Shown here one piece after another: positions 38,992-39,837 of a stretch of DNA of 64,000 nt. The stretch is taken from contig NC_080562.1 in NCBI RefSeq assembly GCF_030253575.1, forward strand, positions 20,993,852-21,057,851, written 5' to 3'. Numbering within the stretch: the stretch's first letter is position 1; each line of letters begins with the position of its first letter. The notes beneath the pieces are model-generated. The model saw only the letters and a list, made by a program, of their open reading frames with translations, searched no databases and had not been told where the DNA came from. The position numbers and the translations under genes were made by a program. The stretch comes from Rhododendron vialii (Eukaryota > Streptophyta > Magnoliopsida > Ericales > Ericaceae).

Positions 38992-39837
38992 ATGTCTCTC
39001 ATCACTCTGCTCATGTTTTTCCTTGTTGCCGGTAGTTATGGTGCACGAGAGTATGAGAGTAAGAGAGAAGTTCCTCAAGTCCCAAATAATCAAACCTCTC
39101 CCCCATCTCCTCCTTTGGTGAAAGACTCTCCCTCAGTTGCCTCAGAAGAGAGCATTGAGATCAAGAGGCTTGTTCCCTCCGGCCCAAATAGTCAAACATC
39201 TTATTCTCCTCCTCCTCCTCCTCCTCCTCCTTCGGTGAAAGGCAGTCTCTCAATTGGATCGGAGACTATTGGACTAAAGAGGCTTGTTCCCTCCGGCCCA
39301 AATAGTCAAACATCTTATTCTCGTCCTCCTCCTCCGGAGAAAGTCAGTCTCTCAATTGGATTGGAGACGATTGGGCTAAAGAGGCTTGTTCCCTCCGGCC
39401 CAAATAATCAAACATCTCCTCCATCTCCCCCTCCCCGTAAAGGCGCTCTCTCAAATGAATCAGAGAAGATTGGGTTAAAGAGACTTGTTCCCTCTGACCC
39501 AAATAATCAAACATCTCCTCCTTCTCGTAAAGATGTTCTCTCAAATGGATTAGAGACGATTGGGTTAAAGAAGCTTGTTCCTACCGGCCCAAATAACCAA
39601 ACATCTCCTCCGTCTCCCCCTCTGCATAAAGGTGCTCTCTCAAATGGATCAAAGAAGATTGGGTTAAAGAGACTTGTGGCCTCCGGCCCAAATAATGAAG
39701 CATCTCATCCTTCTCCTCCTCCACATAAAGACATTCTCTCAAATGGATTAGAGACGATTGGATTAGAGAGGCTTGTTCGCCCAAATGATGAAACATCTCC
39801 TCCTTCTCCGGGTAAAGACTCTCTTGCCCGGAATTAA
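38992..39837 (+). CDS. Secreted multi-repeat precursor with eight CLE-like peptide motifs
   Basis: Single-exon ORF, 281 residues. Residues 1-18 (MSLITLLMFFLVAGSYGA) form a signal peptide. The rest is eight spaced 12-mers starting at residues 25, 59, 97, 131, 164, 194, 227 and 260, of type RLVPSGPNNQTS. The first eight residues (RLVPSGPN) are identical to the start of canonical plant CLE dodecapeptides such as CLE9/10, but the usual PLHN end is replaced by NQTS or SQTS. Most motifs follow IGLKR, a basic flank suited to processing. Spacers are 18-26 residues, Pro/Ser-rich (PPSPPP), like hydroxyproline-rich glycoproteins. Motifs 7 and 8 are degenerate. I infer an apoplastic peptide-hormone precursor; a Pro-rich wall protein that resembles CLE by chance is the alternative. 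The ATG context is GCCAAAATGTC. Confidence 0.75.
   Translation: MSLITLLMFFLVAGSYGAREYESKREVPQVPNNQTSPPSPPLVKDSPSVASEESIEIKRLVPSGPNSQTSYSPPPPPPPPSVKGSLSIGSETIGLKRLVPSGPNSQTSYSRPPPPEKVSLSIGLETIGLKRLVPSGPNNQTSPPSPPPRKGALSNESEKIGLKRLVPSDPNNQTSPPSRKDVLSNGLETIGLKKLVPTGPNNQTSPPSPPLHKGALSNGSKKIGLKRLVASGPNNEASHPSPPPHKDILSNGLETIGLERLVRPNDETSPPSPGKDSLARN

What the first reader, a model, noticed from the sequence alone, without database searches (positions are those of the whole stretch)
38992..39837. A secreted precursor carrying eight CLE-like peptide motifs in tandem
One signal peptide is followed by eight spaced 12-mers, most starting RLVPSGPN, the same first eight residues as canonical CLE peptides, usually after IGLKR. 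Most known plant CLE genes make one peptide from one C-terminal motif; multi-CLE precursors are known mainly from a few plants and cyst nematodes. Here the usual PLHN end is consistently NQTS or SQTS, so the family may be a divergent, multi-peptide branch of CLE signalling. Seen: the motifs, spacing and signal peptide. Inference: peptide-hormone function.
Basis: partly seen in the sequence, partly recalled or inferred. Interest (0 to 1): 0.88.

Follow-up and report, generated by a model that had tools for sequence, protein, structure and literature searches.

The report
Rhododendron multi-CLE-like peptide precursor gene
A Rhododendron-type plant gene encodes a secreted-looking protein with several tandem copies of a plant hormone-like (CLE) peptide, most likely one more member of an already described class of multi-peptide CLE genes, with proline-rich ends instead of the usual histidine/asparagine ends.

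Summary
The 281-aa ORF at 38992-39837 is real. It has a signal-peptide-like start and eight in-frame CLE-like motifs: three exact RLVPSGPN, three with one or two changes, two degenerate. A ninth lies past the stop in another frame. The genome is a Rhododendron or close relative. A profile search gave 94 relatives, 66 at E<=1e-3; the named ones among those 66 are eudicots. In 96 proteins 178 of 225 motifs have Pro at position 13 instead of the canonical PxH[NH] end, and eight proteins carry both types. PF27922, precomputed on 116 of 120 listed hits of a canonical CLE query, is on 39 of 94 relatives. So 'CLE-like' is supported. Novelty is not: multi-CLE precursors are in print for rice, wheat, legumes, radish and Brassica napus (radish also eight domains), and rice CLE76 has four motifs ending GPDPITSDPPP, the same TS-plus-proline end. 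I rate it a new, apparently unannotated member of a known kind, possibly decaying. Expression, processing and receptor binding are untested. The open point is how a CLE-like ligand without the C-terminal His/Asn would act.

The parts
38992..39837 (+). 281-aa ORF, one open frame, multi-CLE-like precursor
   Evidence: closest relatives
38992..39042 (+). predicted signal peptide (aa 1-17, cleavage site inferred)
   Evidence: best 9-residue hydropathy 2.99 in the first 40 aa against 1.2 in the rest; no SignalP available
39064..39099 (+). motif 1, REVPQVPNNQTS, degenerate
39166..39201 (+). motif 2, RLVPSGPNSQTS
39280..39315 (+). motif 3, RLVPSGPNSQTS
39382..39417 (+). motif 4, RLVPSGPNNQTS
39481..39516 (+). 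motif 5, RLVPSDPNNQTS
39571..39606 (+). motif 6, KLVPTGPNNQTS
39670..39705 (+). motif 7, RLVASGPNNEAS
39769..39798 (+). motif 8, RLVRPNDETS, degenerate and shortened
   Evidence: translation
39839..39877 (+). ninth motif (RLVSSSPNHKEP, stop), in a different frame from the ORF and past its stop
39212..39778 (+). DNA-level tandem array, period about 99 bp, 5.8 copies, 79% matches
38600..38608 (+). TATA-like CTATAAATA upstream; promoter role is inference only
   Evidence: sequence

Best explanation
It is a secreted multi-peptide CLE-like precursor of the multi-CLE (CLEm) class. The signal peptide sends it into the secretory path (inferred from sequence). Prolines 4 and 7 of each motif, and probably the SPP tails, are hydroxylated and glycosylated (inferred from CLE and Hyp-glycoprotein rules). 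Cleavage near the K-R before each motif frees up to six CLE9/10-like peptides (inferred). The conserved RLV-P-S-G-P-N half would dock on BAM/CLV1-class receptor kinases. Because the C-terminal His/Asn is replaced by T-S and a proline-rich tail, the peptides are probably weak or altered agonists, or compete with canonical CLEs. Shown here: the ORF, the motifs, the family and its shared tail. Everything from processing onward is inference.
For: Three copies score above all of 2000 shuffles and a fourth above 1999. Relatives with the same repeat: 66 of 94 at E<=1e-3. 71 of 89 family proteins that begin with Met have a hydrophobic stretch in the first 40 residues, 6 of 89 have one later (a heuristic). 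Eight of 96 proteins mix canonical and P13 motifs in one precursor. PF27922 is shared with canonical CLEs (39 of 94; 116 of 120 listed). K is at -1 in 71% of 191 distinct non-canonical motifs. pN/pS among motifs 2-7 (1 and 8 left out) is 0.35 in codons 1-8, against 1.36 in codons 9-15 and 0.66 in the spacer (small counts, 15 non-independent pairs). In CLE9 (same first eight residues) V3P cuts BAM1 binding from 100 to 3000 nM and replacing residues 1-3 abolishes it (PMC8847575, passages).
Against: Local Pfam gives no hit for the window protein, and PF27922 could not be run. The PxH[NH] end is absent from all eight copies. Within the window P13 is present in 5 of 8 copies only (motif 8 aligned on its TS; Y in motifs 2 and 3, H in 7). 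Motifs 1, 7 and 8 are worn and a ninth is out of frame. No Ericaceae relative of this gene came back (7982 candidates scored), although R. molle, R. griersonianum and Vaccinium proteins are in that database. In PMC8847575 changing residue 1 or 2 of CLE9 alone had no significant effect on BAM1 binding, Hyp4 and Hyp7 were not needed, the BAM1 complex is a docking model, and the C-terminal contacts, seen with HSL1, are mainly backbone ones, which weakens the argument from the lost end. No expression data.
Confidence: 0.58

Rival explanations
1. A decaying multi-CLE gene: the ancestor was a functional multi-CLE precursor but this copy is losing function, kept open by recent tandem duplications.
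For: Motifs 1, 7 and 8 are degenerate and a ninth is past the stop in another frame. A 274-bp internal fragment with stops sits on C3, 94.9% identical. The A. thaliana relative P0073 is consistent with a frame-shifted reading of similar repeats. No Ericaceae protein was returned.
Against: The ORF is open through eight repeats of unequal spacing and the N-terminus still looks like a secretion signal. pN/pS in codons 1-8 of motifs 2-7 is 0.35.
Confidence: 0.27
2. A proline-rich, extensin-like or HypSys-like cell-wall or glycopeptide protein in which the CLE resemblance is incidental.
For: 17% proline, a run of eight prolines at aa 73-80, SPP tails after most motifs. Two radish multi-CLE genes had been named PERK10 and wsp1-like in NCBI (PMC11172632, section 9).
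Against: The core is conserved over many plant families and co-occurs with canonical CLE 12-mers in 8 of 96 proteins. No Pfam family, extensin or other, hits the protein.
Confidence: 0.1
3. A chance low-complexity tandem repeat, not a gene.
For: The unit is a tandem DNA repeat, so one chance motif could be copied.
Against: Homologues with E down to 2.5e-26 for the window protein; motif scores against shuffles.
Confidence: 0.03

Closest known systems
Rice CLE76 (Oelkers et al. 2008, PMC2254619, section 6 read)
   Same: Several CLE motifs in one precursor, 25-29 residues apart; each ends T-S followed by a D-P-P-P tail (RKVPTGPDPITSDPPP and REVPSGPDPITSDPPP).
   Different: Four motifs rather than eight; P9 kept (here N or S); monocot; letters around the motif differ. 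No homology search between the two was run.
RsCLEm1/2 of radish and CLEm of Brassica napus (PMC11172632, section 9 read, other passages seen; Han et al. 2020 not held)
   Same: Tandem CLE domains with short spacers; RsCLEm1 and 2 have eight each, as here. B. napus proteins P0001 and P0021 found here carry KRLVPGGPDNATSPSNPP repeats; that these belong to BnCLEm is my inference.
   Different: The text I saw prints no RsCLEm letters, so the tail could not be compared; a different plant family.
Legume multi-CLE genes: GmCLE37a/b, MtCLE14/22/26/27, LjCLE32/33/46/47 (PMC4526924, PMC5570945, passages seen)
   Same: Three to nine CLE domains per precursor; repeating units of 24-35 residues in the Medicago and Lotus genes.
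   Different: Domain letters are in figures that are not held, so tail identity is unknown.
Canonical single-motif CLEs, e.g. L006 and L007 in this same genome
   Same: KRLVP[ST]GPN core after K-R, secreted-looking precursor.
   Different: One motif at the C-terminus ending PLHH/PLHN; here many motifs, N or S at 9, mostly T-S at 11-12, and a proline-rich tail.

Membership tests
CLE peptide family | N-terminal signal peptide, small cysteine-poor precursor | tested here: met
   Hydropathy 2.99 in the first 40 aa, no cysteine; heuristic, no SignalP run. At 281 aa it is longer than typical single-CLE precursors (averages 88-91 residues in Lotus and Medicago, PMC5570945) but within the 116-347 given there for multi-CLE ones.
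CLE peptide family | Conserved RxVP[ST]GP[ND] core | tested here: met
   Three exact RLVPSGPN and three near copies of eight; scores against 2000 shuffles.
CLE peptide family | P-x-H-[NH] end at positions 9-12 | tested here: not met
   0 of 8 copies. Relatives: 23 of 225 motifs have it, 178 have Pro at 13 instead. So it is filed as CLE-like, not as a canonical CLE.
CLE peptide family | Match to the CLE profile (PF27922) | tested here: inconclusive
   Model not in the local library. Precomputed on the closest hit P0001, on 39 of 94 relatives (55 of 94 lack it) and on 116 of 120 listed hits, of 359, of a canonical CLE query. That PF27922 is the CLE model is inferred from this.
CLE peptide family | Mature 12-13-mer, hydroxylated and arabinosylated, acting through LRR receptor kinases | not testable with these tools
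   Needs mass spectrometry and binding assays.
Multi-CLE (CLEm) precursors | Several spaced CLE domains in one secreted precursor | tested here: met
   Eight CLE-like motifs, start-to-start spacing 30-38 residues; family median spacing 30, n=131; one open frame. Met for the layout; the domains lack the PxH[NH] end.
Multi-CLE (CLEm) precursors | Transcribed | not testable with these tools
   No RNA data held.
Extensin / HRGP structural proteins | Ser-Pro(3-5) and Tyr cross-link motifs throughout the protein (definition recalled) | tested here: not met
   Four runs of three or more prolines and four tyrosines in 281 aa; no Pfam hit.
HypSys precursors | Multiple Pro-rich glycopeptides without a VPxGPN core (recalled) | tested here: not met
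   The core is present; only the tails resemble HypSys (sequence). No HypSys sequence was compared.

The most novel reading that the evidence does not exclude
An S/P-tailed branch of CLE signalling runs through eudicots (and perhaps rice CLE76). Its ligands keep the receptor-docking N-terminal half of CLE9/10 but replace the co-receptor-contacting C-terminus with a Hyp-rich, glycosylated tail, and act as antagonists or tuners of canonical CLEs, released several at a time from one precursor.
Probability: 0.2. Interest if true: 0.68.

Novelty: new member of a known kind. Interest (0 to 1): 0.36.

Why it matters
Multi-CLE precursors recur in many plants, yet what they release is poorly known; [quoted passage not shown] PMC6747155). 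The S/P-tailed subset offers a natural test of which half of a CLE peptide docks and which half signals. The gene itself seems unannotated: one search returned no near-identical protein.

Tried and rejected
Pfam scan of the window protein: nothing. PF27922 by accession: not in the library. Full-text searches for letters of the variant: (six strings each) gave 0 papers; (six shorter strings) gave 2, in which the strings belong to motifs ending ESN or SPIH. Figures are not held, so this does not show absence from print, and one search shows a rice precedent. (Rhododendron with CLE terms): 39 papers hold three of four terms; in the 10 listed, Rhododendron occurs 0 times. A lead to the Pro-rich group PRP669 (passages of PMC10515272) gave nothing to compare. 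Surveys against ubiquity: no multi-CLE protein among 50 Populus CLEs (PMC4776436, passages), tomato CLEs have a single CLE domain 'overall' (PMC9670457, passages), and one two-motif gene of 27 in pennycress (PMC10436580, passage). Other genes of this kind in the genome: a P0006 query and a P0027 query found the window gene, the C3 fragment, two weak places (E 2.99 and 5.64), and a C12 place matching P0027 residues 10-66, outside its motifs. A VP-x-GP-[ND] pattern found 106 places against 74 for the reversed control (33 and 41), so most are chance. 62 of the 106 were translated: three canonical CLEs (L045, L057, L074) and, at L021, a Met-less 63-residue frame with VPRGPDPSTSP, judged chance. 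Of the other 44, six are the window's own four and L006 and L007; 38 were not looked at. A spliced last exon joining motif 9 was considered by eye only; the donor/acceptor pair seen would give an intron of about 43 bp, judged too short (inference). Structure prediction was not run, as the protein is repetitive and low-complexity.

Full report
What is there. The ORF at 38992-39837 (+) reads 281 aa from ATG to TAA, with stops in the same frame upstream. It begins with a hydrophobic stretch typical of secretion (best 9-mer hydropathy 2.99), has no cysteine and 17% proline, and holds eight CLE-like motifs starting at residues 25, 59, 97, 131, 164, 194, 227 and 260. Three are exactly RLVPSGPN, three differ by one or two residues, two are degenerate. 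Positions 9-12 are NQTS or SQTS in six of eight. A ninth motif has its R at 39839, in another frame, just past the stop. The repeat is a roughly 99-bp DNA tandem array, so the copies descend from one another.

Not chance. A score matrix from 117 canonical CLE 12-mers gives seven copies 15.6, 15.6, 15.1, 13.2, 9.7, 9.4 and 1.8 bits; of 2000 shuffles of the protein 0, 0, 0, 1, 17, 22 and 574 have a best 12-mer at least that good (maximum 13.7), and 724 other six-frame peptides of the window reach at most 6.2. The matrix rests on seven distinct 12-mers of one CLE subgroup, so it is a narrow test, and motif 1 by itself does not pass it.

Where it is. The genome has 532.6 Mb in 13 contigs. Its own canonical CLE gene L006 encodes a protein 95% identical to one of Rhododendron molle and 90% to one of R. 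griersonianum, so it is a Rhododendron or a close relative. The same genome has ordinary CLEs: L006 and L007 and L045, L057 and L074. The only other copy of the window gene found is a 274-bp internal fragment on C3, 94.9% identical, with stops.

Family. The window protein alone finds seven proteins at E<=1: Brassica napus (2.5e-26), Camellia, Arabidopsis halleri, Brassica cretica, Daucus, Ilex, Mucuna (0.17). A profile of seven rows finds 94 at E<=10, of which 66 have E<=1e-3. The named ones among those include Apiaceae, Brassicaceae, Theaceae, Rubiaceae, Malvaceae, legumes, Rosaceae and Pedaliaceae (family names recalled), down to Stephania, Nelumbo and Thalictrum; the monocots Ensete and Leersia are weaker (0.011, 0.013). 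Over P0001-P0095 plus the window (96 proteins) 225 motifs were counted: 178 with Pro at position 13, 23 canonical, 24 other. Among 191 distinct non-canonical motifs R1 is 94%, L2 80%, P9 59%, S12 70%, P13 87%, P16 64%. The search rule fixed V3, P4 and P7 and restricted positions 6 and 8, so only the other positions are evidence. The rule finds five of the window's eight motifs and none in P0041 and P0073. Hit selection by a multi-repeat profile biases the counts: 65 of 91 (P0001-P0090 plus the window) have two or more motifs. In the window itself Pro 13 is present in 5 of 8 copies.

CLE kinship. Eight of 96 proteins carry both canonical and P13 motifs in one chain, among them Pyrus, Sesbania and Rubus. 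The Pfam label PF27922.1 is precomputed on 116 of 120 listed hits (of 359) of a canonical CLE query, many named CLE12/13, and on 39 of 94 family hits, of which five (P0091-P0095) are themselves single-motif canonical CLEs. I infer that it is the CLE model; it could not be run on the window protein.

Prior art. Multi-CLE precursors are described for rice, wheat and Medicago (PMC2254619, section 6 read, other passages seen), soybean, Medicago and Lotus (PMC4526924 and PMC5570945, passages), wheat TaCLE26 (PMC6747155, passages), and radish RsCLEm1/2 with eight tandem domains each and B. napus CLEm (PMC11172632, section 9 read, other passages seen). The last paper says the class is absent in Arabidopsis. 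Rice CLE76 is printed with four motifs ending PITSDPPP, so a TS end with a PPP tail is in print. Surveys of Populus and tomato report single CLE domains (passages), so the class is not described everywhere.

Mechanism. In CLE9 (RLVPSGPNPLHN) V3P cuts BAM1 binding from 100 to 3000 nM and replacing residues 1-3 abolishes it, while single changes at 1 or 2, or Pro for Hyp at 4 and 7, do not matter much; the last two residues, shared with IDA, touch HSL1 and its SERK co-receptor, mainly by backbone contacts; the BAM1 complex is a docking model (PMC8847575, passages). The window copies keep the first eight residues of CLE9 in their best form and lose the last four. The simplest reading is a precursor releasing several peptides that can dock but signal weakly or differently. 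Conservation inside the gene fits: for motifs 2-7 pN/pS is 0.35 in codons 1-8, 1.36 in codons 9-15, and 0.66 in the 12 codons before K-R of six repeats, though on few changes and non-independent pairs. Processing, modification and receptor are inference.

Against. Worn motifs 1, 7 and 8, the out-of-frame ninth, the absence of any Ericaceae relative although Ericaceae proteins are in that database, and the lack of expression data leave a real chance that this copy is decaying.

Verdict. Interest is moderate to low; the S/P-tailed subset is the part worth a specialist's time.

Noticed in passing
Protein P0073 (named Arabidopsis thaliana): A codon path exists that encodes P0073 and reads RLVPSGPNNATSPPSP (a 16-mer of relative P0016) at two places in another frame, and a 41-mer composed by me at one; 0 of 500 shuffled 11-mers fit, and a 16-mer modelled on P0003 did not. 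A. thaliana may keep a frame-shifted relic of this family, or the gene model is off. The DNA itself was not seen.
   Followed up: partly
L002 (G000 C3:32528407-32528790): A 274-bp internal fragment of this gene with stops, 94.9% identical, near other repeats; looks like a captured or transposed gene piece.
   Followed up: partly
window 40905-42746, minus strand: ORF with four MA3 stretches (E 2e-108); neighbour useful as a synteny anchor.
   Followed up: no
window 10001-22000: A GC-richer stretch (0.46-0.53 against 0.36-0.40 in the neighbouring bins) with a 52-bp tandem array at 16792-17161 and no ATG-started ORF of 200 aa or more; possibly an old transposable element.
   Followed up: no
P0023, P0032, P0033, P0044, P0056, P0059, P0065, P0087 (Pyrus, Sesbania, Rubus and unnamed sources): Precursors that carry canonical P-x-H-type and P13 motifs side by side; P0079 is a multi-motif protein with canonical PLHN ends.
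   Followed up: no
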